A stretch of 64,000 nucleotides of DNA, from the NCBI GenBank assembly GCA_902793325.1, contig CADBCY010000003.1:1-64000 (forward strand), given 5' to 3'. Under the pieces are notes generated by a model. The model was not told the DNA's origin. It did not search any database and saw nothing but the letters and a program-made list of their open reading frames with translations. Within the stretch, counting starts at the first letter, position 1, and each line of letters starts with the position of its first letter. Below, piece after piece: positions 29,401 through 49,320 of this stretch. The DNA is from an uncultured Eubacteriales bacterium (GTDB lineage: Bacteria > Bacillota > Clostridia > Christensenellales > Aristaeellaceae). The translations under genes were made by a program, and so were the position numbers.

Positions 29401-30723
29401 CGTCTCGCGCTCCATGGAGCCGGTGGAGATCAGGTTCGGCAGCAGCATGTACAGCCCGAAGCCGACCATCAGCCACAGGCCGACGTGCCCCGTCCACTTT
29501 TCGATGCCGTCGCGGCGCTGCTTCGCCGTCTTGAGGGCCGCGGCGGAGACGAAGCCGTACACCAGCGTCGCGCCGATGGTGGTCACGTCCACGATCCAGC
29601 CGATGGCCGTGCGGCCCACGAAGGGAACGAGCACCGACACCGCGGCGATGAGCTTCATGGCGTTGGCCGGCACGCCCTTGTCGTTCAGCTCGGAGATCTT
29701 CTTGGGCAGTATGCCGTCCAGGCTCTGGGCGTACAGCAGGCGGCTCAGGCAGGTGATATTGCCGATGAGGCTGGTCAGGATCAGCGCCATCAGCGAGGCC
29801 ATCAGCACCCAGACGCCCGCGTCGCCCATGTAGTGGTGCGCGGCGTAGAAGCCGGGCAGCGCCTCGAGGCCGGAGAGGTTGCCGCGGTCGCGGATGTACT
29901 CCAGCCAGGAGCCGTAGCGCTCCGGATAGGCCGTGACCGACAGGAGCGTCACGAATATGTACAGAAGCGCCGTGGCGACGGTCGCCGCCACGAGCACACG
30001 GAATATCTTGGAGCGCGAAAAGCTGAACTCCTCCGCGCGGTGGGAGATGCTCTCAAAGCCGATGAACGCCCACGGGGTGATGACCGCGATCTTGACGATC
30101 TGGGAGATCGCCCCGGAATCGGGCAGGTAATGGGGCTGCATGGTGATCTTGAGTCCCAGCATCGAAACGGCGAACACCGCCGCGATGCCGGCGAAGAACA
30201 CGCACACCAGCGCCTCCATCAGCTTCACCGTCAGCTTGTGGCTGCGCGTGCACAGCAGCACCGTCAGCACGATGGCCGCGATGGTCACCACCGTCTCGCC
30301 GAAATACACGTCGTAGCCGAAGATGGTGTACATCTTCCCGATCTGCAATACGCCGCCCAGGAAGTAGCGCGTGAACAGCGGGATCGACGTGGCGTTGGCC
30401 CAGAGCACGGACAGGTACGTCAGCGTCAGGAACCAGCCGGTCAGGAAGCCGTGGTCGTAGCCGAACACCTCCCGGCTGTAGGTGTACGCGCCGCCCGCGT
30501 CGGGGTAAATCTGCATCATGTAGGCGTAGTTGCGGGCGATGAGCAGCATAATCAGCGTGCCCAGCGCGATGCCCAGCACGCTGCCCCAGGGACCGGCCTG
30601 GCCCAGGTAGCTGTTGGCGGTGACCACCAGCGAGCCCCAGCCCACCGCCGTGCCCAGCGCGAACGCCCAGGCGCCGAAGGGCGACAGCCGCGCGTCCGGC
30701 CTCGCCAGCTTACTCGTATTCAT
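26416..30723 (-). CDS. APC-type permease fused to GGDEF-REC-GGDEF-EAL
   Basis: 1435 residues in one frame. Residues 1-490 are an amino acid-polyamine-organocation permease, about 12 helices, with GTAVGWGSLVVTANSYLGQA, DAGGAYTYSREVFG and AFIGFESISHRAEEF. A short outer loop and one helix (about 539-557) lead to an intact GGDEF domain (TGGDEFVVIL, about 650) and then a response-regulator receiver (VVEDEEVNR, phospho-Asp in LLDLQMPRMNG about 802, Lys in IPKPYP). A second, degenerate GGDEF follows (RRGADTFLL, about 957), then an EAL domain with SAEALVRW, EITESAYTGE and EMDDFGTGYSSLGML, and a 130-residue tail. Both synthesis and breakdown of c-di-GMP look possible. GAGGGG sets the ATG at 30723. Confidence 0.92.
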   Translation of the reverse strand: MNTSKLARPDARLSPFGAWAFALGTAVGWGSLVVTANSYLGQAGPWGSVLGIALGTLIMLLIARNYAYMMQIYPDAGGAYTYSREVFGYDHGFLTGWFLTLTYLSVLWANATSIPLFTRYFLGGVLQIGKMYTIFGYDVYFGETVVTIAAIVLTVLLCTRSHKLTVKLMEALVCVFFAGIAAVFAVSMLGLKITMQPHYLPDSGAISQIVKIAVITPWAFIGFESISHRAEEFSFSRSKIFRVLVAATVATALLYIFVTLLSVTAYPERYGSWLEYIRDRGNLSGLEALPGFYAAHHYMGDAGVWVLMASLMALILTSLIGNITCLSRLLYAQSLDGILPKKISELNDKGVPANAMKLIAAVSVLVPFVGRTAIGWIVDVTTIGATLVYGFVSAAALKTAKQRRDGIEKWTGHVGLWLMVGFGLYMLLPNLISTGSMERETYFLFVVWSILGFLFFRTILRHDREKRFGGSIVVWIALLSLVLLISLIWMRQSMILSNDRMLGNIKAYYAEIGDASRMADEAYIEGQANWLDRENTNTLLMAIIMFAIAVGMMFSNHAYLSKRAKESELAANIDPMTGVKSKHAYLTKEREINAGISGGNGRDFAIAVCDVNGLKKINDTLGHKAGDEYICKASEMICDIFQHSPVYRTGGDEFVVILTDRDYAVRRELMKVLHDRSVSHISTGDVVVSGGLSDFTPGEDASFHHVFERADALMYEEKQLLKGLGSITRDEAPEEEEKPVDQASILNVQKKIMVVEDEEVNRLMLGNALEADYEILYAADGIEAMQLADQHQSELALMLLDLQMPRMNGMEVLRAIKEDAALRHIPIIVLTADQQAELECLKIGAVDFIPKPYPAWEIVKARVDRCVELSEIRETIKSTERDSLTKLYNIDYFLRFVGMYDTHYPDMAMDCVVVDINQFHMLNERYGKVYADEILRKVGERIRKAVRKVGGVGCRRGADTFLLYCPYREDHSLLMEQLSGDLAEDEVVANRVRLRMGVYQQVDKELDIERRFDRAKMAADAVKGGNARAIGIYNDEMHKAALYRDRLLEDFRTSVKNGRFKVYFQPKYDIRPEAPVLASAEALVRWDHPELGMISPAQFIPLLEDSGLILELDQFVWRETAAQIRAWKDRFGFAVPVSVNVSRVDMLNPDLKGIFAEILSEYRLGVEDIMLEITESAYTGESELVLSTARELRGMGMGFRIEMDDFGTGYSSLGMLRQLPIDALKLDISFVRSAFGETRDVRMIELIIDIADYLGVPVVAEGVETGEQLLLLKALGCDYVQGYYFSVPVPAQEFERFLEERGERDIPIAHEAHRTGTSLSKALPGDFERVFYVDTVTGRYLEFHTGARGALEIRPGGTDFFREGPAKLLEGVPAEDAARVREAVSKERLADRSPGGAVDLTYRRQQDGRAESCRLQVLRVRENDDHHVVIGIRPE

Positions 30724-30782
30724 TCCGTGAACCCCTCGTTTCGGAGCGTGAGGCGCCAAGCGAGCCCCTCGAAATTCAGCTT

Positions 30783-31271: not shown

Positions 31272-31405
31272 CCCCCTTCCGGGCGCGTGCGCCCGCCCCC
31301 ATTATAATGCGGGATGCGCCCGGCGGTCAACTCCAATCTGCGCGCCGCGAAAGACACGGCCGGCCGGCGGATGCGCCCGGGACCGGTCGGGAAGGAGGAA
31401 TCCCC

Positions 31406-32761
31406 ATGGCCAACGATACGATGATCCGCGATCTGACGCGGGGGCCCGTCGTGTCGCAGCTCTTCCGCTTCGCCATGCCCCTGTTCATCTCCAACGCCCT
31501 GCAGGCCGTGTACAACCTCGTGGACATGGTCGTCGTGGGCAATTACATCGGCAAGGCGGGCATGTCCGCCGTGTCCATCGGCGGCGACATCCTCCACCTG
31601 CTGACCTTCGTCGCGATGGGTTTCTCCTCCGCCGGGCAGGTCATCATCGCCCGCGCGGTCGGGGCCAACCGGCTGGACGACGTGAAAAAGACGATCGGCA
31701 CCATGTTCAGCTTCCTGCTGGGGGCGTCCGTATGCATCGCGCTGGGGTGCTTTGTGATCCGCCGCCAGGTGCTGCACTGGCTGAACACGCCGGACGCGGC
31801 CTGGGCGTACACGATGGACTACATGGTCACCTGCGTGTGCGGCCTGGTGTTCATCTACGGCTACAACATCGTCAGCGCCATCCTCCGCGGCATGGGGGAC
31901 AGCCGGCGGCCGTTCGCGTTCATCGCCGTCGCGGCCGTGCTGAACACCGCGCTGGACGTGCTGTTCGTCAAGTACTGCGGGCTGGAGGTGTTCGGCGCGG
32001 CGCTCGCCACCGTGATCGGGCAGGGCGTGAGCTTCATCGCCTCGATCATCTACCTCTACCGCCATCGCGACAGCTTCGGCTTCGACTTCCGGCCCGCCAG
32101 CTTCCGCATCGACCCGCAGGCGTTCCGGCGGCTCCTGGCGCTCGGGATCCCCATGGCGATCCAGTCCGCCGCCGTCAGCTTCTCCAAGATCATACTGATG
32201 GCCTGGATCAACCTGTTCGACGTGACGTATTCGGCGCTGGCGGGCATTTACAACAAGGTCAACATCATGGTCAACGTCATCGCCATGTCCTTCACCACCG
32301 CCGGCAGCACCATGGTCGGCCAGAACCTCGGCGCGCGAAAGCACGGCCGCGTCAATCGGACGCTGGCGACGGTGCTGGCAGTCGGCATGGCGATCGCCGC
32401 CGCGCTGCACGTCGTCATGGCGGTTTGCCCGGACGCCGTGTACGGCATCTTCACGCCCGACGCGGGGCTGCTCGCCGTCGCCGCCGTGCTCACGGTGCCG
32501 ATCATACTGAACTTCTACGGCGCGGCCACCCGCAGCGCGGCGTTTTCCCTCATCAACGGCTCGGGGCGGTCCGGCCTGAACCTGGCGGTCGCCATCATCG
32601 ACGGCGTGATCACGCGCATCGGCTTGGCCGCGCTGCTGGGCTTCGCGCTCCGGATGGACTGCTTCGGCTTCTGGATGGGCGACGCGCTGGCGGGCTTCAT
32701 GCCCCTGCTGATCGGCGGCGCGTTCTACCTCTCCGGAAAGTGGAGGGAGGGCGCGGCCTGA
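31406..32761 (+). CDS. MATE family efflux transporter
   Basis: 451 residues, 12 hydrophobic segments, with the MATE repeats visible (FRFAMPLFISNALQAVYNLVDMVVVGNYIG; ILRGMGDSRRPFAFIAVAAVLN; LGIPMAIQSAAVSFSKI; MSFTTAGSTMVGQNLGA). It is a cation-coupled multidrug or metabolite exporter of the DinF/NorM type. AAGGAGG at 31392-31398 sets the ATG at 31406, although the frame is open from 31307. It converges on the MATE-HATPase gene, and the two stops are 25 bases apart. Confidence 0.92.
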   Translation: MANDTMIRDLTRGPVVSQLFRFAMPLFISNALQAVYNLVDMVVVGNYIGKAGMSAVSIGGDILHLLTFVAMGFSSAGQVIIARAVGANRLDDVKKTIGTMFSFLLGASVCIALGCFVIRRQVLHWLNTPDAAWAYTMDYMVTCVCGLVFIYGYNIVSAILRGMGDSRRPFAFIAVAAVLNTALDVLFVKYCGLEVFGAALATVIGQGVSFIASIIYLYRHRDSFGFDFRPASFRIDPQAFRRLLALGIPMAIQSAAVSFSKIILMAWINLFDVTYSALAGIYNKVNIMVNVIAMSFTTAGSTMVGQNLGARKHGRVNRTLATVLAVGMAIAAALHVVMAVCPDAVYGIFTPDAGLLAVAAVLTVPIILNFYGAATRSAAFSLINGSGRSGLNLAVAIIDGVITRIGLAALLGFALRMDCFGFWMGDALAGFMPLLIGGAFYLSGKWREGAA

Positions 32762-32785: not shown

Positions 32786-34534
32786 TCATGCATCCCGCGC
32801 GGGCCGGTACGCGCAGGTTACGACCGTGGTGTTGAAGCCGACGATCTGGTGGTATTCGACGTTCGAGGCCAGCGCCCGTATGAGCGGGAGCCCGGTGACC
32901 ATCCCGCCGTCCGTCATGTACTCGGTGGGGTTGAAGATCCGGCCGCTGTCGCGCACCTTCAGCACCACGCTGTCGTCCAGTATGCGGAAGAACAGGTCGA
33001 TCTGGTCGGCGGGCTTCAGCCCGGAGTACCGCGCGATGTTCACGCAGAGCTCCTCCGCGGAGACGCCCACCGCGCCCGCCAGCCCGGGCGGCAGGCCGTT
33101 GGCCCGGCAGAAATCCAGCAGCGCCTGGGACGCCTCCGTGGCCTCGCGCTCCGTGCAGCCGATGCTGGCCTCCCAGGTCCGGCTGATCTCCGACGGGCGC
33201 AGCATCAGGAAGCTGTCGCAGCCCTCCCGCTTCGCCCTGCGCCGCATGCGGCACGCGACGAAGGCCATGGACAGCGCCGCGGAGATGGCGAAAGCGGACG
33301 CCATCGGGAGGATGCCGACCCGGGACAATAAATAGAAAATCGGAATCATGAACACCGCCCCCTGGAGCACCGACAGCTCCGTGGCGGTGTTTTCGTGTCC
33401 CGTGGACTGGTAGAAGCAGCGCAGCACGTACAGCGGCGCGACCAGCGGAACGGCGAGGCAGTACACGCGCAGCCACGGGACCAGGATCGACAGCATCTGC
33501 GCGTCGTTCACGCCGTAGATGCCGGCGAACGCCGCGGGGAACAGCTCCAGCCCCGCGAAGATGACCGCGCAGAGTCCCAGCACCAGTGCCAGCGCCGATT
33601 TCAGCACGTGCAGCATGCCGTTGCGGTCCCGCTCGCCGTACAGCGCGCCCACGACGCTGGCCATCGAGGTCGCCGCGCCCTCCGCCGCCATCGTCGCGTA
33701 GAGCATGCCGGCGTTGCATACGGAGATGATCTGCCCGCCCGCGCTGCCCAGCATGCGCAGCATGGTGGCGTTGACGGTGTAGTTCCTGAGCATGTCGCAG
33801 GCGTCGATCAGCGATATGGGCAGGCCCACCCGCAGCACCTCGACCAGGCGGCCGAGGTCGCCGGCCCCGGGCCGCACGAAGCGCAGCGAGCGCGACCGGC
33901 TGCGCAGCCAGGGGATCAGCAGGCCCGCGGCCAGGGCGTAGCCCGTCACCGTCGCCCACCCCGCGCCGCGGATCCCCCAGCCGAACACGCGAATGTACAG
34001 TATGTCGCACAGCAGGTTGATGACGTTCGCCACGATCGGGATCGACGCCGCCAGCCTGTGGCGGCTCTCCAGCCGCATGAAGGACGCCGAGCCGTTGCTC
34101 AGCACGGTGAACGGCGCCAGCGCCCACAGCGGCCGCAGGTAAGCCTCCACGCTCGCGCCCAGCGCGCCCGGCCCGGCCAGGAACCCGGCCAGCGCCGGCG
34201 CGGTCAGCATGCCCGCCGCCGCGAGCAGCGCGGAGAACAGCACGCCGCCGCCCAGGGCCAGCGTGAACACGCGGTTGCATTCCTCGAACCTGCGCGCGCC
34301 CATCCGCTGCGACACCAGCGTGCCGCCGCCCGAGATGAACAGGCAGAACGCGATGTTCTTCACGTACACCACCGGTATGGTCAGGTTTACCGCGGTGAAC
34401 GCCTCCGGGCCGATCAGCTTGCCGACCAGTATGCCGTCCACGATGGTCGCCACGTAGATGGACAGCGTGAACGCCATCGTGGAACAGAGGTATTCCAAGT
34501 ATTTTTTGCGCACCAGCACGCCGTTTCGCTTCAT
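32786..34534 (-). CDS. MATE-type transporter fused to HATPase domain
   Basis: 582 residues. Residues 1-about 430 are a MATE-type transporter (YVATIVDGILVGKLIGPEAF; FCLFISGGGTLVSQRMGAR; RLESRHRLAASIPIVANVIN). The C-terminal about 140 residues are an HATPase_c_2/anti-sigma-like ATP-binding domain: SAEELCVNIARYSG (N-box-like), VVLKVRDSGRIFNP (G1-like DxG) and MTDGGMVTGLPLIRALA (G2-like). This domain usually occurs in RsbW/SpoIIAB-type kinases; no His-kinase phosphoacceptor domain is present. GGGGAGGGA precedes the ATG. It begins 15 bases after the NRPS stop on the same strand, so it probably exports or senses the NRPS product. Confidence 0.9.
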   Translation of the reverse strand: MKRNGVLVRKKYLEYLCSTMAFTLSIYVATIVDGILVGKLIGPEAFTAVNLTIPVVYVKNIAFCLFISGGGTLVSQRMGARRFEECNRVFTLALGGGVLFSALLAAAGMLTAPALAGFLAGPGALGASVEAYLRPLWALAPFTVLSNGSASFMRLESRHRLAASIPIVANVINLLCDILYIRVFGWGIRGAGWATVTGYALAAGLLIPWLRSRSRSLRFVRPGAGDLGRLVEVLRVGLPISLIDACDMLRNYTVNATMLRMLGSAGGQIISVCNAGMLYATMAAEGAATSMASVVGALYGERDRNGMLHVLKSALALVLGLCAVIFAGLELFPAAFAGIYGVNDAQMLSILVPWLRVYCLAVPLVAPLYVLRCFYQSTGHENTATELSVLQGAVFMIPIFYLLSRVGILPMASAFAISAALSMAFVACRMRRRAKREGCDSFLMLRPSEISRTWEASIGCTEREATEASQALLDFCRANGLPPGLAGAVGVSAEELCVNIARYSGLKPADQIDLFFRILDDSVVLKVRDSGRIFNPTEYMTDGGMVTGLPLIRALASNVEYHQIVGFNTTVVTCAYRPARDA

Positions 34535-34549
34535 AACCGTCCCTCCCCG

Positions 34550-37500
34550 TCAGACGTCAAAGAACCCGAAGCCCGCCATGGCCCGGATGGCCCGCTCGAT
34601 GTACTCCGGCGTGATGACGGGCCACGAGAAGCCGAGGCGGTAGAGCGCCTTGACGGTATAGGCGTTGCTGACGTCCACGTAGCGGTGGACCTCGCCGCCG
34701 TTGGTCTGGTAGGATACCAGGCTGGAGACCTCCAGGCTGTGCGCCGGGTCCGTCAGCATTTCGTTGAGCCGCTGCCGGAACCGCCCGGCGGTGACCACGT
34801 TGAGCCGCATGCCGCAGTTGTCGAGCGCCTCGAGGATGTTGGCCATGTGCACCACGTGGCAGTTGTCCGCGTGGAACACCGTGTACCGATCCTGCGTGCC
34901 GGCGAGCAGCACCAGCGCCCGGGCGACGGAATCGACGGGGGAGAACTCCACCGGCGTATCCATGTCCTCCACCGGGAAGCAGCCCAGCGCCACGTAGGCC
35001 CGCAGCCGGTTCATGAAGCCGTTGGTGGTGAAGTTGATCTGGAACTCGCCGTCGCTGCGCCGGCTCATCAGGTTGCCCACGCGCATGATCTTGGCGCGCA
35101 GGCCGCGCTCCGTGATCGCGGAGAGGATCTCCCGCTCCGCCTGGAGCTTGGACCGGGTGTACTTCGTGCCCAGCGTCTGGCCGATGTCGAGGTCGCACTC
35201 GGTAAACCGCCGCCCCTCCGGCACGCTGCCGTCGACGGACTGCCCGGCCACGCTCTCGGTGGACACCTGCACGAGGCGCGCGCCCTTTTGGAGCGCGAGC
35301 TCGATCAGGTTCCGCGCGCCCTGCAGGTTGACGCGCTCGATGATGTCGTCCTGGGCGAAGTGCTTGACCACCGCCGCGCAGTTAAAGACGGTGTCGACGG
35401 GGAAACCGTCCAGCGCCTGCGCGAGGTCGTCGTCGGTGACGTCAGCCATGACGATGCGGATGCGCGCCTCGAACGCCGCGTCGAAGGTATCGTCGAAGTA
35501 GTACGCCAGCAGCGCCTTCAGCCGCTGCTCCGCCGACAGGCGCCGCTTCGGCCGCACCAGGCAGACGATGCGCTCCGCGCGATCCTGCCGCAGCAGCTCC
35601 CGCAGCACGTGGATCCCCAGGAAGCCCGTCGCGCCCGTCAGCAGCACGTTGCCGAGCGGCGCGGACGCGATGCCCTCCAGATGCGCCGCGGTATTGCAGG
35701 CCAGGGCCCCGCAGCCCGGCGGCGCGGCCTGCGGCTGCGGCGCGGGCGCCTGCTCCGGCGGGGCCTCGCGCTCCGGCGGGCGGCGGACGAAGGCGGCCAG
35801 CGCCCGCGGCGTGGTGTGGTCGAACACGTTCCGGTAGACCAGATCCCAGCCGCGGCCGACGGCGAAGGCCACCACCATCATGGCCGACAGCGACGTGCCG
35901 CCGATCTCGAAGAAGTCGTCCGTGGCGCCGACGCGCGGGCGCTTCAGGATCTCGGCGAAGCAATCGCAGAACGCCCGCTCCACGTCGTCGGCCGGGGGCT
36001 CGAAGGCGCTCGCGGCGCGCTCGAAGCCCACGTCGGGCAGGCGCTTGCCGTCGATCTTTCCGTTGGCGGTCAGGGGCATTTCGTCGAGCTGCGTCAGCAC
36101 GTCCGGGATCATGTAGGCCGCCAGGCGCTCCCGCATGAAGCCGGCGAGCGCGTCGGCGGACACCCGTTCCCGCGCGGTGTAGAAGCCCGCGAGGTAGTCC
36201 TCGGAGCCGTTGTTGCGGACGACGACCTTTGCCAGCTGGATCCCCGGCATGGCCAGCATGACGCTTTCGATCCCGTCCAGCTCCACCCGCAGGCCCCGCA
36301 GCTTCACCTGGTTGTCCCTGCGGCCGCGGAAATCGATCTCGCCGTCCGGCAGCAGCCGCGCCAGGTCGCCGCTCCGGTAGGCGGGGCGATCCCACAGGCG
36401 GAAGAAGCACTTCGCGGTCAGCTCGTCCCGGTTCCGGTAGCCGCGCCCCACGCCCTCGCCGAGAATCACCATCTCGCCCAGCGCGCCCAGCGGCAGCACG
36501 TGGCCGCCTGCGTCCGTCATGACCACCTTCACGTTGCCGTTGGGCAGGCCGATGGTCACGCGCTCGCCGCCCGTCATCACCGCCATGGTGCAACTGATGG
36601 TGGCCTCGGTCGGGCCGTAGCCGTTCATGATGTACACGTCCCGGTTCCACGCGCGGATCTTGTCGTACAGCGCCGCCGGGAATGCCTCCGCGCCGACGTC
36701 GATGGCGGCGAGCCGCTCGATCGCCGGGCGCATCGCGGGCACCTCCAGCAGGTTCGACAGCAGCGACGGCGTGCAGGTGAGCAGGTCCACGCCGTTGTCC
36801 AGGCACAGCGCCCGCAGGGCCCGGTAGTCGCGGCGCTCGTCGTCGTTGGCCATGACGACGGTCAGGCCGTGGGCCAACGGGATGAATTCCTCCATGACGG
36901 ACACGTCGAACGATACGGAGGCCAGCGCCAGCGACACCCGGCCGCGCCGGATATAGCCCAGGATCTCCCGGTTCCTGGGGTTGTCGTCCACGAAATTCAC
37001 CAGGTTGCGCTGCGTCAGCAGCACACCCTTGGGCCGGCCCGTGGAGCCGGAGGTGTAGATGGAATAGGCCAGCGCGTCGAAGGGCACGTCGAGGTTCAGG
37101 TCGTCGGCGGACAGCGAGGGATCGGTTGCGTCCTCGACGAAGCAGACCTCCAGCCCGGGCCGCTCGAACAGCGCGCCGCGGGCGGCGAAGAGGTCCCGGG
37201 AGGTGACGATCTGCGCGCAGCCGGCGTCCTCCAGGATGAAGGAGATGCGGTCGTCCGGGTATTCCGGGTCGATGGGCAGGAACGCGCCGCCCGCCTTCAG
37301 TATGCCCTGCCGCGCCACGTAGACTTCCACGCCGCGGTTCAGCAGCACCGCGCAGAGCCTTTCCACGTCCAGGCCGCGGCGGCGCAGCAGCCGCCCCAGC
37401 CGGTTGGCCCGGGCGTTCAATTCGGCGTAGGTCAGCCTTTCGCCGTTGGCGACGGCGGCCACGCGGTCGGGCCACTTCGCCGCGCTGTCCTGGAGCAGGC

Positions 37501-40500
37501 GGTAGGCGGGGCGCTCGGCCACGGGCCAGTCGGTGTCGTGCAGCGCCCTCAGCGCGGCCTCCGTGGCGTCGGACGCCGGGCGCACCGCGCCCAGCACCTC
37601 CTTCGTCAGGAATTCCGCGGCCACCTGCGCCATGCAGTCCATGAACGAGCGCACGAAGGCCGCGCCGTAGACCTCCGGCCGGTGCTCGCACGCGAAGGCG
37701 ATGCGGCCGCCCTCGACCGAAACGTCCACGGACAGCGCGGACTTGGCGGTGTCCGACGCCGGGCGGATGACCTCCGCGGGCGCGCCGCAGAAGATCGGCG
37801 CGATCTCCATATCGTCCTGCCAGGCCACCATCAGCTCCGCGCTGACGCCGTAGGCGCGGGCGATTTCCGCGAAGCCGAACGAATCGCTGTTCATGGAGCC
37901 GTCCAACTGGTCCCGCACCGCGGCCAGGTAATCCGCCACCCGCGTCTCGGGCGTCCACCGGCAGCGCACCGGCAGCGTCCGGACGAGCATGGTCACGGTG
38001 TTGAACGCGCGGCTGTCGCTGCGCCCGTCGTAGATGGTGGTGAACACGGCCTCGTCCGAGGCGGTGAACGCGCCCAGCGCGTAGCCGAACACGGCGTTGA
38101 AGAACGCGTTGCCGGTGACCCTGTGCGCCGCGCAGAAGTCGCGCACCGCGGCGGCGTCCAGCCCGGTCAACAGGCGCAGGGGGCCCGCGCCGCCCTCGCC
38201 GGGCAGCGGGAGCAGCTCGGTCATCCGGGCGTCAGAGAGCAGGGCGTCGTACCAGGCCTGCGCCTCGGCGTAGCGCGGCCCGCCGCGCCGTTCCGATTCC
38301 TCCAGCGCCGCCTCGTAGCCCGTGAAGCGCTCCGGCTCGGGGGCTTCGCCCGCGTAGGCGGCCTCGATGTCCCGCTGCAGCAGGGCGCGGGAACGGCCGT
38401 CCGCGGCGATGTGGTGCATGTCGAGGTAGAAGTAGTTCCCTCCGGGCGTACAGTGGATCTCCGCCCGGTACAGCGCGTCGTGCAGCAGGTCGTAGGGCCG
38501 CGCAAGGCGCTCCGGCGCGATGGGGGCGTCGCTGCGGATCAGCTCGACCTGCGCCGGGGCGGCGTCGTCCCGCAGGGCGAAGATCTGCCCGTCCCGCTCC
38601 CGGAGCCGCGCCTTCATGTAGGGGTGCGCGTCGACGGCGGCGGCGACGGCCGCGCGCAGGCGCCCGAGGTCGATGCCGTCGTCCAGCTTCCACAGCACGG
38701 GGATATTGTAGATGGTGGTGCCGGGGTGGTTCAGGCACTCCACGTAGATGCCGTACTGGGCCTGCGTCAGCGGGTACTCCTCCCGGACCTCGTAGGCCCT
38801 GCCCGCCTCCGCGCGCTCCAGCCACGCCGCCAGCGCCTCGACGGTATCGTGGGCGCGCAGCGCGGCCAGCGTCACGTCCCGCCCGAAGGTTTCGCTGATC
38901 CTGAGCATCAGCGCCACCAGCGTCAGCGAGGTCAGGCCGATGTCCGCGAAGGCGGTGCGGATGCCGAAGGCGCGCGAGCCGACGATCGCCGCCACGATAT
39001 CGAACACGCTTTGCTGCGCGTCCGTCTCCGGCGGCGTCGCGTCGTCGTCCGTCGCCTGCAGCTCCGGCACGGGCAGGGCCTTCAGGTCGGTCTTGCCGTT
39101 GGCGGTGACCGGGATGGCGTCCAGGCGCGTGATGGCCGCGGGCACCATGTAGCGGGGCAGGCGGGCCGCCAGCGCCGCCTTCAGCGCCGATTCGTCCAAT
39201 GCCGCGTCGCCGGTCCAGTACGCGCAGAGCTGCTCCTGCCCGCCGATCACCTTGATCGCCGCCACCGCGCGCTTCACGCCCGGCTGCGCGGCCAGCGCCG
39301 ATTCGATCTCGCCCAGCTCGATGCGCAGGCCGCGCAGCTTCACCTGGCCGTCCATGCGCCCGAGGATCAGCACGTTGCCGTCTGCGTCCCATTTCGCGTA
39401 GTCGCCCGAGCGGTAGAAGCGCCCGCCCCGGAAGTCCACGAACCGCTCCGCGGTCTGCGCCTCCAGGTTGCGATAGCCCTTCGCCACACCGGGGCCGCCG
39501 ATGTACAGCTCCCCGGTGACGCCCCGGGGGACCAGCTCGCCGTTCGCGTCCACGATGTACTCCCGCACGTTCAGCAGCGGCCGACCGACGGAGATGTGGT
39601 CTGCGCGCTCCAGCCGCGCCATGTTGCTGGAGATGGTGCACTCGGTGGGGCCATAGGTATTGATGATACGGGGAATGCCCAATGCCCTCAGGCGCTCGAG
39701 CAGCGCCGCGGGATAGCCCTCGCCGCCCGCCATGACCAGTTTAAGCCCTGCCAGCGCCTGCTCGAAGGGCGGGTATTCGAGGTATTGCAGGTAGCGCGAC
39801 GGGGTAGCGTTCATAGCGTCCACGCCGTTTTCCCGGATCAGCGCGGCGAGGGACCGGGGATCGTTCATGGCGTTCTCTGCGGCGAATACCACGACTCCGC
39901 CGTTGACCAGCATCCCCAGCGTATCCTTCAGGGACAGATCGAAGGACACCGTGGTCACCGCCAACATGCTGTGAATCTCCCGCGCCACCGTATCGTAGAG
40001 TATATTGGCCGGATGAACCCGGCAGAAATTGCAGATCCCCCTGTGCCGCAGCATCACGCCCTTGGGCGTGCCGGTGGAGCCGGAGGTGTAGATCATGTAG
40101 GCCAGGTCGTCCCCGGTCAGCGGTACGCCGGGGTTTTCGGTCCTCTTGCCCGCGAGCAGCGCTTCGATGTTCACCGCTGCCCCGGGGTGGTCGGCCATGT
40201 GCGCGTCGGTCGCGATGATGCACGCCGCCCCGGAATCGCCGAGGATGTGCCGGATGCGCTCGGCGGGATACTCCGGGTCGCAGGGGATGAACGCCGCACC
40301 CGCCTTCAACGCGCCGAACAGCGCCGAGAAGTAGAAGCTGCGGCGCGGCAGCAGTAGCGCGACGCGGTCGCCCGGCCGTATGCCCCTGTCGATCAGGCTC
40401 CAGGCCACGCGGTTCGCGTCGGCGTTCAATTCCGCATAGGTCAGCGTCCTGTCGCAGGCAACCAGCGCCGTCTGGTCCGGCTTCTGCGCCGCGACCCGCT

Positions 40501-41845
40501 CAAACACCCCGTGCAGCAGGGTTTCCGGGATTTCCGCCGTCGCGGCGACGGACAGCGCCTCCAGCTCCCTGGCCTGCCTTTCGGGCAGCGCGCCCACGTC
40601 GCCCACGGTGGCGCCGGGCGACGCGCACATGGCCCCGAGCGTCGCGTCGAGCTGCTCCAGGAAGTTGTCGATCAGCGCGTCGTCGTACAGCCGGGACGAG
40701 TATTGCAGCGTGAACGCCGTCTCCGCCCCGCGGCGGCGAATGGTGACGCTCATGTCCCGCTTCATGCGCTGCAGCGGCACGCGCGGCTCGACGGAGATCG
40801 CGCCGTCCGTCGCGACCGGGGGCATGTACAGGTAATTCACGCTCACGTCGAAGATCGGGTTGCGCGAGGCGTCGTGCGCCGGGGCGAACGTCCGGACCAC
40901 CTCGGCGAAGGGCAGCCAGTCGCCGTGCGTGGCGGCGCGGATGGCCGAGGCGACCTCGCGCAGGTAGTCCGCCAGCGGCTTGCGCGCCGCGGGCTTCACC
41001 CGCACCGGGGCCGTGTTGACGAACATGCCGATCACGTCGCGGCTGCGCTCGTCCCGCGTGTTGGTGGGCACGCCCAGCACCACGTCCTCGCTGCCGCAAT
41101 ACCGGCTCAGCGCGATCGACACGGCGGCGAACAGGAACTGGAAGGTGGTGCATCCCGCGGCCTTCGCCGCGCGCCCGACGGACTCGATGCGCCCGGCGTC
41201 GATCGCCAGCGCCTTGCAGCGGTCCGTCGCCGGCATCGCCTGCGGCCGCGGCCCCCGGGTGGGCATTTCGGGGACGGGCACGCCGTCCGCGAACATCGCC
41301 CGATAGAGGGCGAGTCCCCGCTCCAGCCGGGCGGAGTGATCGTCGAGCGCCAGGTCGGACAGGTCCGTCGCCGCAATTCCGGGCGCCTCGCCCTTCAGCC
41401 GCGCCAGCAGCTCCCCGGTCAGCGCGGCGAGGCTGCCCCCGTCGATGGCGATGTGGTGGATGGCCAGGTCCACCAGCACGCCGCCCGTTTTGAGCGCGTA
41501 GCCCGTCGGGCGAAGCGGCACGCCGGCGCGCAGGTCGAAGGGGGCGTCCCCGGAAAGGGCGATGTCCTCGGCCGCCTGCCGGTCATCGGCCTCGCGCCAG
41601 AGGATGTCCGGCGCCTCCTCCGTCATGATCCGCACGGGCACGCCGTCGACGTTGTCGTAGCGGGAATGAAACGCCTCGTGTGCGGCGAACACGTCCCGCA
41701 GCGCCGCGTCCACGGCTTCGCGCGTCGCGCCCTGAATGCAGTAAAGCAGATGAGTGTTGTACTCGGTGGAAGCCGGGTCGTTCATCTGCTCCAGGTACAT
41801 GCCGCACTCGCAGGCCGTCAATGGGAAGCACTTGTCGCGCATCAT
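34550..41845 (-). CDS. Two-module NRPS with terminal reductase (C-A-T-C-A-T-R)
   Basis: 2431 residues. C1 about 5-430 (HHIAIDGG at 130); A1 about 440-930 (YTSGSTGTPKG at 586, NTYGPTEC); T1 with Ser about 973 (DIGLTSL); C2 about 1020-1430 (MHHIAADG at 1143); A2 about 1440-1940 (YTSGSTGRPKG at 1597, NGYGPTEA); T2 with Ser about 1985 (IGGTSLS); terminal NAD(P)H thioester reductase from about 2065 (LLTGATGFLG; YTRSK catalytic Tyr/Lys). The product should be an N-acylated or capped dipeptide released as an aldehyde, since the first module starts with a C domain. By eye the A1 pocket reads D-L-K-N-M-G-T-I-S and A2 D-V-M-T-D-G-G-I-S; I do not assign substrates. No phosphopantetheinyl transferase gene is in the window. 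Confidence 0.94.
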   Translation of the reverse strand: MMRDKCFPLTACECGMYLEQMNDPASTEYNTHLLYCIQGATREAVDAALRDVFAAHEAFHSRYDNVDGVPVRIMTEEAPDILWREADDRQAAEDIALSGDAPFDLRAGVPLRPTGYALKTGGVLVDLAIHHIAIDGGSLAALTGELLARLKGEAPGIAATDLSDLALDDHSARLERGLALYRAMFADGVPVPEMPTRGPRPQAMPATDRCKALAIDAGRIESVGRAAKAAGCTTFQFLFAAVSIALSRYCGSEDVVLGVPTNTRDERSRDVIGMFVNTAPVRVKPAARKPLADYLREVASAIRAATHGDWLPFAEVVRTFAPAHDASRNPIFDVSVNYLYMPPVATDGAISVEPRVPLQRMKRDMSVTIRRRGAETAFTLQYSSRLYDDALIDNFLEQLDATLGAMCASPGATVGDVGALPERQARELEALSVAATAEIPETLLHGVFERVAAQKPDQTALVACDRTLTYAELNADANRVAWSLIDRGIRPGDRVALLLPRRSFYFSALFGALKAGAAFIPCDPEYPAERIRHILGDSGAACIIATDAHMADHPGAAVNIEALLAGKRTENPGVPLTGDDLAYMIYTSGSTGTPKGVMLRHRGICNFCRVHPANILYDTVAREIHSMLAVTTVSFDLSLKDTLGMLVNGGVVVFAAENAMNDPRSLAALIRENGVDAMNATPSRYLQYLEYPPFEQALAGLKLVMAGGEGYPAALLERLRALGIPRIINTYGPTECTISSNMARLERADHISVGRPLLNVREYIVDANGELVPRGVTGELYIGGPGVAKGYRNLEAQTAERFVDFRGGRFYRSGDYAKWDADGNVLILGRMDGQVKLRGLRIELGEIESALAAQPGVKRAVAAIKVIGGQEQLCAYWTGDAALDESALKAALAARLPRYMVPAAITRLDAIPVTANGKTDLKALPVPELQATDDDATPPETDAQQSVFDIVAAIVGSRAFGIRTAFADIGLTSLTLVALMLRISETFGRDVTLAALRAHDTVEALAAWLERAEAGRAYEVREEYPLTQAQYGIYVECLNHPGTTIYNIPVLWKLDDGIDLGRLRAAVAAAVDAHPYMKARLRERDGQIFALRDDAAPAQVELIRSDAPIAPERLARPYDLLHDALYRAEIHCTPGGNYFYLDMHHIAADGRSRALLQRDIEAAYAGEAPEPERFTGYEAALEESERRGGPRYAEAQAWYDALLSDARMTELLPLPGEGGAGPLRLLTGLDAAAVRDFCAAHRVTGNAFFNAVFGYALGAFTASDEAVFTTIYDGRSDSRAFNTVTMLVRTLPVRCRWTPETRVADYLAAVRDQLDGSMNSDSFGFAEIARAYGVSAELMVAWQDDMEIAPIFCGAPAEVIRPASDTAKSALSVDVSVEGGRIAFACEHRPEVYGAAFVRSFMDCMAQVAAEFLTKEVLGAVRPASDATEAALRALHDTDWPVAERPAYRLLQDSAAKWPDRVAAVANGERLTYAELNARANRLGRLLRRRGLDVERLCAVLLNRGVEVYVARQGILKAGGAFLPIDPEYPDDRISFILEDAGCAQIVTSRDLFAARGALFERPGLEVCFVEDATDPSLSADDLNLDVPFDALAYSIYTSGSTGRPKGVLLTQRNLVNFVDDNPRNREILGYIRRGRVSLALASVSFDVSVMEEFIPLAHGLTVVMANDDERRDYRALRALCLDNGVDLLTCTPSLLSNLLEVPAMRPAIERLAAIDVGAEAFPAALYDKIRAWNRDVYIMNGYGPTEATISCTMAVMTGGERVTIGLPNGNVKVVMTDAGGHVLPLGALGEMVILGEGVGRGYRNRDELTAKCFFRLWDRPAYRSGDLARLLPDGEIDFRGRRDNQVKLRGLRVELDGIESVMLAMPGIQLAKVVVRNNGSEDYLAGFYTARERVSADALAGFMRERLAAYMIPDVLTQLDEMPLTANGKIDGKRLPDVGFERAASAFEPPADDVERAFCDCFAEILKRPRVGATDDFFEIGGTSLSAMMVVAFAVGRGWDLVYRNVFDHTTPRALAAFVRRPPEREAPPEQAPAPQPQAAPPGCGALACNTAAHLEGIASAPLGNVLLTGATGFLGIHVLRELLRQDRAERIVCLVRPKRRLSAEQRLKALLAYYFDDTFDAAFEARIRIVMADVTDDDLAQALDGFPVDTVFNCAAVVKHFAQDDIIERVNLQGARNLIELALQKGARLVQVSTESVAGQSVDGSVPEGRRFTECDLDIGQTLGTKYTRSKLQAEREILSAITERGLRAKIMRVGNLMSRRSDGEFQINFTTNGFMNRLRAYVALGCFPVEDMDTPVEFSPVDSVARALVLLAGTQDRYTVFHADNCHVVHMANILEALDNCGMRLNVVTAGRFRQRLNEMLTDPAHSLEVSSLVSYQTNGGEVHRYVDVSNAYTVKALYRLGFSWPVITPEYIERAIRAMAGFGFFDV

Positions 41846-46232: not shown

Positions 46233-49133
46233 TCACACTTTGCCGTCGAGGATCTTCCGCTCGAATTCCTTCGCCGGCAGCGCGGGCGAGAAGTAGTAGC
46301 CCTGCACCAGGTGGCAGCCCGCGTTCCGCAGCAGCGTCAGCTGCTTTTCCGTCTCCACGCCCTCGGCCACCACGGGCACCTTCAGGTATCTCGCAATGTC
46401 CACGATCAGCTCCACGAGGCGGAAGTCCTTCTCGTTGCGCTCGATGTGCTGGATGAAGGCGATGTCCATTTTCAGCACGTCGATCGGCATGGAGGAGAGC
46501 ATGTTCAGCGACGAATAGCCGGAGCCGAAGTCGTCCATCTCGATCTGATAGCCCTTTCCGCGCAGCTCCCCGATGACCCGGATCAGGTGGTCGGCGTTCT
46601 CGGTGTAGGCGGACTCGGTCACCTCCAGCTTGAGGTCGGCGCGGTCCAGCGCGTATTGGGCCACCAGGCCGTCCAGCGTCTCGATCAGCGTCGGGTCGAA
46701 CACGTCCACGCGGGAGAGGTTCACCGACACCGGCAGCACCACGCCGCGCCTGTCGCGCCAGGCGGCGATCTGGCGGGCGGCCTCCGCCCAGACGTAGTTG
46801 TCCAGCGCGCTGATCTGGCCGCTCCGCTCGAACAGCGGGATGAAGTCGGTCGGGGAGATGATGCCCAGCTCCGGGTGCCGCCAGCGCACCAGCGCCTCGG
46901 CGCTGTTCAGCTTCGGCGGATCGCACTGGATGTCGAACTTGGGCTGGTAGTACACCTCCAGCTCGCCGTGCTCCAGCGCGCGGCCGAGGTCGTTCAGGAG
47001 GCGCTGGTTGAGCGCGTCGTGGCGGCGCAGCTCCTCGTCGTACACCACGAGGCGGGACTTGTAGTCCCCGCGCGCCATGCTGCACGCCGACCACGCCCGG
47101 TCGAACATGTCCTCCGGCGGCATGCCCGGCTGCCAGGGCATGACGCCCATGCGCAGCCGGATGTCCGCGCTCTGGAACTCCGTGTTGACCAGGGACTGGA
47201 AGCGGTCGAGCAGCCTGACGTAGCTCTCCTGCTTGACGCAGTAGATGTTGAAGAAGTCGCCCTCCATGCGGGCGGCGATGCCATGCGTTTCGCGGAGGAA
47301 GTCCTCGATCCCGCCGCCCAGTCTGCGGAGCACCTCGTCGCCGAAGGCGCGCCCGTTCAGCGTGTTCAGCGCGTGGAAGTGCTCGATGTTCATGACGATG
47401 GCGTCCATGGGCTCGTCGGGATGCCCGCGGTGGATCTGGTTGGCGTACACCATGAAGAAGCTCCGGTTGTACAGCTGCGTCAGGTTGTCGCGCTCCGCCT
47501 CGGAGATGATCTGCCGGCCCTTGCTCGCCTTGGTCTCCGCCCGCAGGCTCCACAGCAGCAGCAGCAGGATCACGGAGATGATGATGGCGATGGTGGCCAC
47601 CACGTAACCCAGGTTGTCGCGAAGGTAGTCCCTGAAGGTGACCCTGTCGGCGCTGAAGGAGTAGTTGGTCAGCGACGAGTTGACCGCCGCTTCCGGCATG
47701 AGGCGGCTGATCTTGTTGAGGATCGAATACAGGCAGTCGTCCTCGCGCCGCACGGCGAAGGACAGGTCCATGCTCTCGCCGGTGGCGAGCGTGGAGAGCT
47801 TGTACTTCTCGCACAGGTCGCTCATGCGGTTGAGGCGGTAATTGCTCACCAGCACGCAGTCCGCATCGCCGGAGGCGACCGCCCGGGTGGCGGACAGGCT
47901 GTCCTCAAAGTACACCGGCTGCCAGTTGGGGAAGTAATCCATCAGGAAGGTCTCGGCGTTGGGGTTGCTCCGGTTGACGGCGACGACGAGCTCCCGGTCG
48001 GGGGAGATGCCCTGCTGATCGGCGGTCCGGACCGCCGCGTACATCTCCGTATTCACGAAGGGGTCCGTGACGATGACGCCCAGCTTCTCGCCGTCGTAGG
48101 CGCTGAGCGTTACCGGGAACAGGCAGTCGATCTCGCCGTCGCCGAGGGCCTTCAGGGCGGCCTCGGTGGTATCGAAGGCGCGGGTCTCGAAGCTGAGCTC
48201 CGCGTTCTTCTCGCTCGTCTCCGCAAACGCCAGGATGTCCGACAGCGCGCCGGTGAGGGACTGCGTCGCCCCGTCCAGGCCGCAGAAGGGGAGGTAGTCG
48301 TCCCGGTAGCCCACGCGGATCACGCCGTGGCCGGAGAGCCAGTTCTTTTCGTCCGGGGTGAGGAAGCTGTTGACCGCGACCGCCTTGTTGAACTTCTCCG
48401 TCATCTGCTGGTTGAAGTCCCGGTTGTCCTCCAGGATGCGGTTCATGGCGACGTCCAGGTCCTGCTTCAGGTCCGGGCGGTTTTTGTTGATGCCGAAGTA
48501 GGAATCCGCCGCGCCGACCTTGCACACGGGCACCACGTCGGCCTTTCGGCCGTAGGTGTCCAGGGTCACCAGCACGTCGATCTCGCCGCGCGCCAGCATT
48601 TCCAGCAGCTCGGGCGTCTTCTCCGTCAGCTCCACGACCTCCGGGTGCACGTCGTGGTTCTTCGCCCAGTCGATGAACATCTGCTCCTGGACGGTGTTCT
48701 TGTTGACGCCGACCCGCTTGCCGTTGAAGGTGGAGAAATCATCGGGGCTGATTTCGGTGTTGTCGGGCGAGATGAAGGCGTGGTAGTCCTCCGAGCCCAT
48801 GGCTTCGGCGGAATACAGGATCTTCTGCGCGCGCTCCTCGGTGTAGGATACGTCGCTGAGCAGGTCGATCTCCCCGGCCACCAGCTTCTCGAACAGCTCC
48901 GACCAGCTCCCCTCCACGTACTCGTAGGTCCAGCCGGTGAAGGTGGCGACGCGCTGCTGGTACTCGTAGCCGTATCCCGAGCGCCTTCCGAACGCATCCG
49001 TCCGGTGGAAGGCCGATTCGTACCATCCGACGCGAACGGTCTTCTTCTCCCGCGTCGACGCCTGCGCGGCGAGCGATACTGCGAGCGCCGACACCAGCAG
49101 AAGACACAGCAGAATCGTCATCAGCTTTTTCAT
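46233..49133 (-). CDS. Double solute-binding-domain GGDEF-EAL protein (second copy)
   Basis: 966 residues with the same order as the protein at 22423: signal peptide (MKKLMTILLCLLLVSALAV), two family-3 solute-binding domains (KTVRVGWYESAFHRTDAFGR; GVIRVGYRDDYLPFC), a TM helix, a degenerate GGDEF (ARMEGDFFNIY) and an intact EAL domain (SAEALVRW, EVTESAYTEN, EMDDFGSGYSSLNML). Probably an active c-di-GMP phosphodiesterase controlled by an extracellular ligand. The binding pockets differ from the other copy in many residues, so the ligands may differ. The ATG at 49133 has GGAGGC upstream and is preferred to the one at 49181. Confidence 0.92.
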   Translation of the reverse strand: MKKLMTILLCLLLVSALAVSLAAQASTREKKTVRVGWYESAFHRTDAFGRRSGYGYEYQQRVATFTGWTYEYVEGSWSELFEKLVAGEIDLLSDVSYTEERAQKILYSAEAMGSEDYHAFISPDNTEISPDDFSTFNGKRVGVNKNTVQEQMFIDWAKNHDVHPEVVELTEKTPELLEMLARGEIDVLVTLDTYGRKADVVPVCKVGAADSYFGINKNRPDLKQDLDVAMNRILEDNRDFNQQMTEKFNKAVAVNSFLTPDEKNWLSGHGVIRVGYRDDYLPFCGLDGATQSLTGALSDILAFAETSEKNAELSFETRAFDTTEAALKALGDGEIDCLFPVTLSAYDGEKLGVIVTDPFVNTEMYAAVRTADQQGISPDRELVVAVNRSNPNAETFLMDYFPNWQPVYFEDSLSATRAVASGDADCVLVSNYRLNRMSDLCEKYKLSTLATGESMDLSFAVRREDDCLYSILNKISRLMPEAAVNSSLTNYSFSADRVTFRDYLRDNLGYVVATIAIIISVILLLLLWSLRAETKASKGRQIISEAERDNLTQLYNRSFFMVYANQIHRGHPDEPMDAIVMNIEHFHALNTLNGRAFGDEVLRRLGGGIEDFLRETHGIAARMEGDFFNIYCVKQESYVRLLDRFQSLVNTEFQSADIRLRMGVMPWQPGMPPEDMFDRAWSACSMARGDYKSRLVVYDEELRRHDALNQRLLNDLGRALEHGELEVYYQPKFDIQCDPPKLNSAEALVRWRHPELGIISPTDFIPLFERSGQISALDNYVWAEAARQIAAWRDRRGVVLPVSVNLSRVDVFDPTLIETLDGLVAQYALDRADLKLEVTESAYTENADHLIRVIGELRGKGYQIEMDDFGSGYSSLNMLSSMPIDVLKMDIAFIQHIERNEKDFRLVELIVDIARYLKVPVVAEGVETEKQLTLLRNAGCHLVQGYYFSPALPAKEFERKILDGKV

Positions 49134-49320
49134 GGGGAGCCTCCTCGGAAGCGACTGCTTCGCGTAACAAGGAAATAACACAGCATATTATACCAGATAC
49201 ATGCAATTTTGTCTACCAAAATTAATTCGATGGGCCAATATTGTTAAGGATGCGTTCCCTGCGGCGACGACGCGCGGCCCGGAAACCGCCCGCACGGGCG
49301 CGCGTGCCGGCGGCAAGGGC

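What the first reader, a model, noticed from the sequence alone, without database searches (positions are those of the whole stretch)
34550..41845. Reductase-terminated dipeptide NRPS of the gut type
Seen: C-A-T-C-A-T-R in a single 2431-residue frame with intact catalytic motifs in all domains. Known: gut Clostridia carry NRPS genes with terminal reductases whose products are dipeptide aldehydes, which can inhibit host proteases or cyclise to pyrazinones. Here an extra N-terminal C domain precedes the first A domain, which points to an N-acylated (lipidated) or otherwise capped aldehyde instead of a free-amine dipeptide that could cyclise. Inference: a new protease-inhibitor-like compound.
Basis: partly seen in the sequence, partly recalled or inferred. 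Interest (0 to 1): 0.85.

Follow-up and report, generated by a model that had tools for sequence, protein, structure and literature searches.

The report
Gut peptide-aldehyde synthetase, known family
This is an apparently intact gene for an enzyme that very probably makes a small, perhaps fat-capped, peptide aldehyde of a kind gut microbes are already known to make as protease inhibitors; its first joining domain and its neighbouring exporter have unusual ancestries that are worth a test.

Summary
In detail: one minus-strand frame, 34550-41845, 2431 aa, C-A-T-C-A-T-R, with the core motifs I checked present. The architecture is common: of the 80 best relatives from a scan seeded with its T-R end, 36 are C-A-T-C-A-T-R in one frame, from Bacteroidota, Bacillota, Mycoplasmatota and methanogens. 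N-acylated dipeptide aldehydes from gut NRPS clusters are in print (N-octanoyl-Met-Phe-H, ruminopeptin), so a capped aldehyde is not a new class.

The argument from C1 needs correcting. C1 does not group with the RzmA-type and EntF starter C domains; moving the three N-terminal members of its clade there is rejected. Its clade is mostly internal C domains, and all six with a readable upstream A domain follow a loading A without Asp235, probably loading a non-amino acid; these six are only two lineages. C1 thus looks like an acyl-joining domain whose loader is absent here.

The next gene is a MATE exporter with an RsbW/SpoIIAB-like tail. In relatives, STAS and SpoIIE switch genes often lie nearby, as reported for one methanogen. 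New member of a known kind.

The parts
34550..41845 (-). C-A-T-C-A-T-R nonribosomal peptide synthetase, 2431 aa
40568..41845 (-). C1: N-terminal condensation domain; groups with internal, probably acyl-joining C domains; HHIAIDG intact
   Evidence: AlphaFold model pLDDT 82.7, best Foldseek hit TycC PCP-C 2jgp
39041..40531 (-). A1: adenylation domain, code DLKNMGTIS
38804..39043 (-). T1: carrier domain, GLTSL
37556..38797 (-). C2: internal condensation domain of the main gut clade; HHIAADG
36005..37522 (-). A2: adenylation domain, code DVMTDGGIS
35771..36007 (-). T2: carrier domain, GGTSL
34553..35707 (-). R: terminal thioester reductase, TGATGFLG and YTRSK
32786..34534 (-). MATE exporter fused to a C-terminal HATPase_c_2 domain, 582 aa; 15 bases lie between it and the synthetase's stop codon
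32789..33214 (-). RsbW/SpoIIAB-like ATPase tail of the exporter
   Evidence: Pfam HATPase_c_2; AlphaFold pLDDT 84.4; Foldseek best hits in RsbV/RsbW and SpoIIAB entries

Best explanation
A two-module assembly line of the known gut reductase-terminated family. Module 1 (A1-T1) and module 2 (A2-T2) each load an alpha-amino acid (inferred: both keep Asp235), C2 joins them, and R releases the thioester reductively as a dipeptide aldehyde (inferred from family knowledge). C1 most likely caps the first amino acid with an acyl group: where the upstream partner can be read in its clade, this domain follows a loading A-T pair whose A domain lacks the amine-binding Asp. Here that pair is missing from the gene and no intact one was found in the assembly, so C1 would have to take acyl-CoA or acyl-ACP (the least certain step). 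The neighbouring MATE protein exports the product (inferred from adjacency). Its RsbW-like tail may couple export to a partner-switch regulator encoded elsewhere in the genome (speculative).
For: Domain order and motifs. R relatives 6vtj and AusA R. 36 of 80 named relatives share the exact order. C1 in a 10-row clade, support 100/100. Of the 8 internal C domains in the clade, 6 have a readable upstream A and all 6 lack Asp235, against 12 of 93 other internal C domains with a readable upstream A. The A domain right after the clade C has code DMKNMGTVS in 7 of the 9 non-window members whose downstream A is in the same frame; window A1 is DLKNMGTIS. HHxxxDG is kept in 10 of 10 aligned members. 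MATE gene 15 bases downstream; MATE within 300 bp on the same strand in 42 of 80 relatives. Published N-acyl dipeptide aldehydes from gut clusters.
Against: The six loader examples are two close lineages, not six independent events, and 2 of the 9 downstream A domains (L088, L090) have another code. No loader in the window gene; the own-genome PP-binding search (13 of 13 candidates scored) found only the two T domains here, one in a truncated remnant, one carrier between plsX-like and RNase III genes, and one in an 87-aa frame. No Sfp-size PPTase found: one PF01648 match, in a 151-aa frame, AcpS-like in size. C1's best solved relatives are elongation-type C domains (type recalled). Neither A code matches one that I recall, so the residues are unassigned. 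Nothing shows that the gene is expressed.
Confidence: 0.55

Rival explanations
1. C1 is idle. Its loading module was lost, the enzyme starts at A1, and it makes a free-amine dipeptide aldehyde that cyclises to a (dihydro)pyrazinone.
For: No loader in the gene, and none found intact in the assembly. A paper assigns pyrazinones to C-A-T-C-A-T-R enzymes (PMC10979478, passages read). L039 also begins at this type of C domain, with no A or T match in its 1 kb upstream.
Against: HHIAIDG and the other invariant residues of the clade are kept in C1, whereas an idle domain would be expected to decay.
Confidence: 0.22
2. C1 receives an aminoacyl or peptidyl unit in trans from a separate NRPS subunit, so the product is at least a tripeptide aldehyde.
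For: C1 is of internal type by sequence (best PDB match TycC, 140.6 bits, against 39.9 for 7c1k, which I recall as the RzmA starter domain). In the same-genus genome G008 the closest C1 homologue lies on a contig with a separate A-T frame whose code has Asp235 (DAECCGTVD), with a PPTase frame between them.
Against: No intact A-T or other NRPS gene found in the own assembly, 95.06% complete. In the clade, the readable upstream A domains lack Asp235.
Confidence: 0.12
3. The gene is intact but silent or dead in this strain because no suitable PPTase primes its carrier domains.
For: One PF01648 match in the own genome, of AcpS size; 24 of 80 relatives carry a PPTase-like gene near the NRPS.
Against: The 2431-aa frame has no stop; three other NRPS-bearing genomes of the genus (G003, G004, G021) also show a single match; about 5% of the assembly may be missing.
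Confidence: 0.1

Closest known systems
Gut NRPS clusters of Guo et al. 2017 (paper not held; seen through PMC8518294, PMC12327764, PMC10979478)
   Same: NRPS clusters of gut bacteria whose dipeptide aldehydes inhibit cathepsins; one Clostridium cluster (BGC0001686) gave N-octanoyl-Met-Phe-H on expression in E. coli
   Different: No sequence of those clusters was compared here; their C1 types, A codes and exporters are unknown to me
Ruminopeptin pathway, Ruminococcus bromii (Schneider and Balskus 2018; only citing papers seen)
   Same: N-acylated dipeptide aldehyde from a gut NRPS; described as N-acylated Leu-Glu aldehyde
AusA, aureusimine/phevalin synthetase
   Same: Homologous reductase (4f6l, 185 bits); A-T-C-A-T-R core (architecture recalled)
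   Different: The window enzyme has an extra N-terminal C; 1120 bits against a family cut-off of 2500
Methanobrevibacter ruminantium mru_0068 (PMC2812497, passage read)
   Same: Two modules each with C, A and T, and a MatE gene beside it
   Different: The paper also lists two serine phosphatases and an anti-sigma factor antagonist beside it, which the window lacks; its text calls the last domain a thioesterase, its Figure S8 legend a thioester reductase
L099 and L100/L103/L109, uncultured Ruminococcus/Clostridia records
   Same: A code DLKNMGTIS (L099) or DMKNMGTVS; MATE-HATPase fusion next door, 34-41% identical to the window's MATE part
   Different: L100/L103/L109 are A-T-C-A-T-R with the Asp235-less loader in the same protein; L099 is cut by its contig end

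Membership tests
Gut reductase-terminated NRPS family | C-A-T-C-A-T-R (or A-T-C-A-T-R) with terminal R homologous to the family | tested here: met
   T2-R best segments 38-47% identical to the 80 kept relatives
Gut reductase-terminated NRPS family | MATE exporter next to the NRPS (common, not universal) | tested here: met
   42 of 80 relatives within 300 bp, same strand
Gut reductase-terminated NRPS family | Sequence kinship to a cluster with a characterised product (Guo 2017, rup) | not tested
Gut reductase-terminated NRPS family | Product is a peptide aldehyde | not testable with these tools
   needs chemistry
Starter C domain of RzmA/EntF type | C1 groups with the starter C domains | tested here: not met
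   careful tree of 49 of 163 C domains; AU test rejects moving the three N-terminal members (p 1.9e-48), borderline for the whole clade (p 0.0469)
N-acylating C domain (function) | Accepts a non-amino-acid acyl donor | tested here: inconclusive
   6 of 6 readable upstream A domains in the clade lack Asp235, but two lineages only, and no donor found here
AusA (NF047350) | Curated score cut-off 2500 bits | tested here: not met
   1120.3 bits
Partner-switch (RsbW-type) kinase in the MATE tail | RsbW/SpoIIAB fold with conserved ATP-site residues | tested here: met
   Foldseek ranks 1-18 are all entries of RsbV/RsbW, SpoIIAB or other anti-sigma factor complexes; E53-E54 and R87-D88-x-G90 invariant in 8 sequences, but the N-box Asn present in the window is not kept in L088 and L090
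Partner-switch (RsbW-type) kinase in the MATE tail | STAS and SpoIIE partners in the cluster | tested here: not met
   no match in the window flanks; SpoIIE (PF07228) 3 and STAS (PF01740) 2 matches elsewhere in the genome
Partner-switch (RsbW-type) kinase in the MATE tail | Kinase activity on a STAS protein | not testable with these tools
   needs biochemistry

The most novel reading that the evidence does not exclude
Across bacteria and methanogens of the gut, reductase-terminated NRPSs form a cassette with an anti-sigma partner switch (STAS, SpoIIE-HATPase) and an exporter whose own tail is an RsbW-like kinase, so that export of a protease-inhibiting aldehyde feeds back on its production. 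The window holds a reduced form: NRPS plus exporter-kinase, with an acyl-joining C1 that has lost its loader and draws on acyl-CoA or acyl-ACP.
Probability: 0.2. Interest if true: 0.6.

Novelty: new member of a known kind. Interest (0 to 1): 0.36.

Why it matters
It adds a member with substrate codes that I could not assign to a family whose products inhibit host cathepsins, and suggests that an N-terminal C domain in this family should not simply be read as a starter: in the tree such domains have three ancestries (RzmA/EntF-like, main gut clade, and this acyl-loader clade). The recurrent STAS/SpoIIE/MATE-kinase neighbours give a testable idea of how such compounds are switched and exported, in bacteria and archaea alike.

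Tried and rejected
Starter-C reading of C1: rejected as a placement, kept as a possible function. Substrate assignment: codes taken by alignment to EntF; neither matches a textbook code that I recall, so none is claimed. Loader in trans: own-genome searches for C domains (4 of 4 candidates scored), PP-binding (13 of 13) and the whole protein (only 5 of 13 first-look candidates scored) gave no intact candidate. The C9 protein is truncated. Of three other A-type matches, the C23 and C4 proteins are AMP-binding with no PP-binding match; the C5 one was not resolved. MATE-HATPase as an NRPS-only gene: rejected; matches running past residue 565 of 582 occur in 17 of 27 same-genus genomes, and twice more in the own genome at places without a C-domain match. 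Viral collection: one hit, L111, not followed. Papers: 10 of 10 searches used; one search found none.

Caveats on counts: C-domain rows under 85% model coverage were dropped, leaving 163; the 92- and 49-row trees are my selections from these, and the sets were named after trees had been seen. Neighbour profiles were seeded from the window and from some of the same loci, which therefore count by construction. The 17 control stretches were chosen by me from contigs of known length in relatives of the window's order, not matched for phylum, and were scored with a fixed database size.

A BLAST search with the window's MATE had listed no C9 frame; Pfam does find MatE there, in one frame above its cut-off and in the other below it. 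One search was a filing attempt with badly formed fields.

Full report
OBSERVATION. The window holds one minus-strand frame, 34550-41845, ATG start, 2431 aa without a stop. Pfam finds Condensation, AMP-binding and PP-binding twice each and one NAD_binding_4 reductase, and profiles built here give C-A-T-C-A-T-R. HHxxxD, carrier Ser, TGATGFLG and YxxxK motifs are present. The roles given to the motifs are general knowledge of NRPS enzymes. The long + strand frame across it has no Pfam match.

REDUCTASE AND FAMILY. The T2-R end matches 6vtj (255 bits, over T and R) and the AusA reductase 4f6l (185 bits) best among solved structures. NCBIfam's aureusimine synthetase model scores 1120 bits, under its cut-off of 2500: related, not a member. 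All 80 carry an R-containing frame; 36 are exactly C-A-T-C-A-T-R in one frame, 9 A-T-C-A-T-R, 8 A-T-C-A-T-C-A-T-R, 27 others, several cut by contig ends (domains counted as found, whole or partial). By record title the 80 are Bacteroidota 37, Bacillota 33, Methanobacteriota 6, Actinomycetota 2, Mycoplasmatota 1, unplaced 1; 18 titles (RGIG series) name a digestive-tract site, and 29 belong to the RUG/RUI series, which I recall as rumen genomes. Among 60 relatives of the window's own genome, similar long NRPS frames occur in several, for example G031, G050, G055 and G056.

WHAT IS IN PRINT. PMC8518294 (passages read) says that N-octanoyl-Met-Phe-H comes from expressing a Clostridium NRPS cluster, BGC0001686, in E. 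[quoted passage not shown] PMC12327764 (passages read) describes the discovery of ruminopeptin. PMC10979478 (passages read) gives C-A-T-C-A-T-R as the pyrazinone architecture. Of the two primary papers, Guo 2017 is not held, and Schneider and Balskus 2018 was seen only as cited. A capped gut dipeptide aldehyde is therefore a known class.

C1. By sequence the best solved relative of C1 is the TycC C domain (140.6 bits); the first C domain of the CDA synthetase scores 51 bits and 7c1k, which I recall as the RzmA starter C, 39.9 bits. The Mycetohabitans NRPS L114 begins with a close relative of 7c1h (756 bits) and served with E. coli EntF as starter reference; that both are starters is recalled. 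In a careful tree of 49 C domains, C1 sits in a 10-row clade (100/100) with L019, L039, L038, L100, L102, L103, L109, L088 and L090. The two references sit in another set (9 rows, 100/98), and the N-terminal C domains of the seven other gut enzymes of this kind that I included sit in a third, with the internal C domains of the family (same picture with 92 rows; with 163 rows I looked at the nearest neighbours, and at the clade, only). Forcing window, L019 and L039 into the starter set is rejected (p 1.9e-48), into the gut N-terminal set too (p 5.0e-56); forcing the whole clade beside the starter set is only borderline rejected (p 0.0469). The sets were named after the first trees were seen, which weakens these p values.

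THE LOADER CLUE. In that clade (11 rows), eight C domains are internal. Six of the eight have a readable upstream A domain, and all six lack Asp235 (VAQF... in L100, L102, L103, L109; VALF/IALF in L088, L090); L038 and L104 could not be read there, being cut by contig ends. Among other internal C domains with a readable upstream A, 12 of 93 follow such an A. The six form two lineages, so the Fisher value (1.7e-5) overstates the case. Asp235 binds the amino group of amino-acid substrates (recalled), so these loaders probably activate other carboxylic acids, and the clade's C domains would acylate the next amino acid. The downstream code is DMKNMGTVS in seven of the clade rows and DLKNMGTIS in the window; L088 and L090 have DAMFSGL.. 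instead. In the window and in L039 the C domain starts the protein and no loader is attached. In the same-genus L019 the homologous C frame follows a PPTase frame and a separate A-T frame with Asp235, and its neighbouring NRPS frames are broken. I conclude that capping by an acyl group is the better guess for the window enzyme, with the donor unknown. AlphaFold gives a fairly confident C fold (pLDDT 82.7, 10 sequences) with TycC and teixobactin C domains first in Foldseek; I do not use the fold to separate the types.

DONOR, PRIMING. The own genome (95.06% complete) has PP-binding matches at five places: two in the window gene, one in the truncated C9 protein, one between a plsX-like and an RNase III gene (primary ACP by position) and one in an 87-aa frame. 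It has one PF01648 PPTase match, AcpS-like in size. I gave 22 of the 28 genus genomes (G000-G027) to the PPTase search: 22 of 22 have at least one match and three have two; in G008 and G018 the second lies on a contig with NRPS modules.

SUBSTRATES. Codes: A1 DLKNMGTIS, A2 DVMTDGGIS (positions fixed by EntF, whose letters read DVWHFSLVD, the code I recall for serine). A1's code recurs in L099; A2's in L108 and three times in L080. No assignment is claimed.

EXPORTER AND SWITCH GENES. Fifteen bases after the NRPS stop comes a 582-aa MATE protein with a C-terminal HATPase_c_2 domain. The tail models well (pLDDT 84.4, 8 sequences) and matches RsbV/RsbW and SpoIIAB entries. In the 80 relatives, MATE lies within 300 bp on the same strand in 42, anywhere in the held flank in 48, fused to HATPase in 25; SpoIIE and/or STAS in 55; PPTase-like in 24. 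Among the 36 with at least 2.5 kb upstream and 5 kb downstream: MATE 20, SpoIIE or STAS 31, and neither in 4. In 17 control stretches of 20 kb: MATE in 2, the other profiles in 0. Pfam scans of 20 neighbours confirm the labels for those that match. For M. ruminantium such neighbours were published in 2010; a search for three matching terms found only that paper in the held library, which does not show that nobody else has reported it. The window cluster has only the MATE fusion. The fusion is not tied to NRPS genes: near-full-length matches occur in 17 of 27 same-genus genomes, and at two more places in the own genome.

VERDICT. A real, apparently intact member of a known and widespread gut family. 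The odd ancestry of C1 and the exporter-switch neighbours are the parts worth following.

Noticed in passing
L027 (own genome, contig C9) 6438-9329: Truncated A(V235)-T-C frame directly next to two MatE-like frames: looks like the decayed remnant of a second MATE/NRPS cluster. Described only.
   Followed up: partly
window 26416-30759 (-): One 1447-aa frame carrying amino-acid permease, GGDEF, response-regulator and EAL matches: a permease fused to c-di-GMP and receiver domains.
   Followed up: no
window 46233-49181 (-) and 22423-25347 (-): Two proteins with SBP_bac_3 plus GGDEF and EAL domains.
   Followed up: no
L021, L022, L023, L029 versus L057, L072, L077, L083, L097: A domains with the unusual code IVRG[IV]GSIA occur both in the window's own genus and in methanogen/archaeal records, and the N-terminal C domains of L023, L057 and L083 group together: possible transfer.
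   Followed up: no
L071, L078, L080: Three-module R-terminated enzymes whose A codes are all of the D[VF]M[ST]DG[GS] type, as if making near-homotripeptide aldehydes.
   Followed up: no
L111 (IMG/VR contig): A C-A-T-R NRPS frame on a contig listed as viral.
   Followed up: no
window 31307-32761 (+): A second MATE gene without a HATPase match, on the opposite strand next to the first.
   Followed up: no
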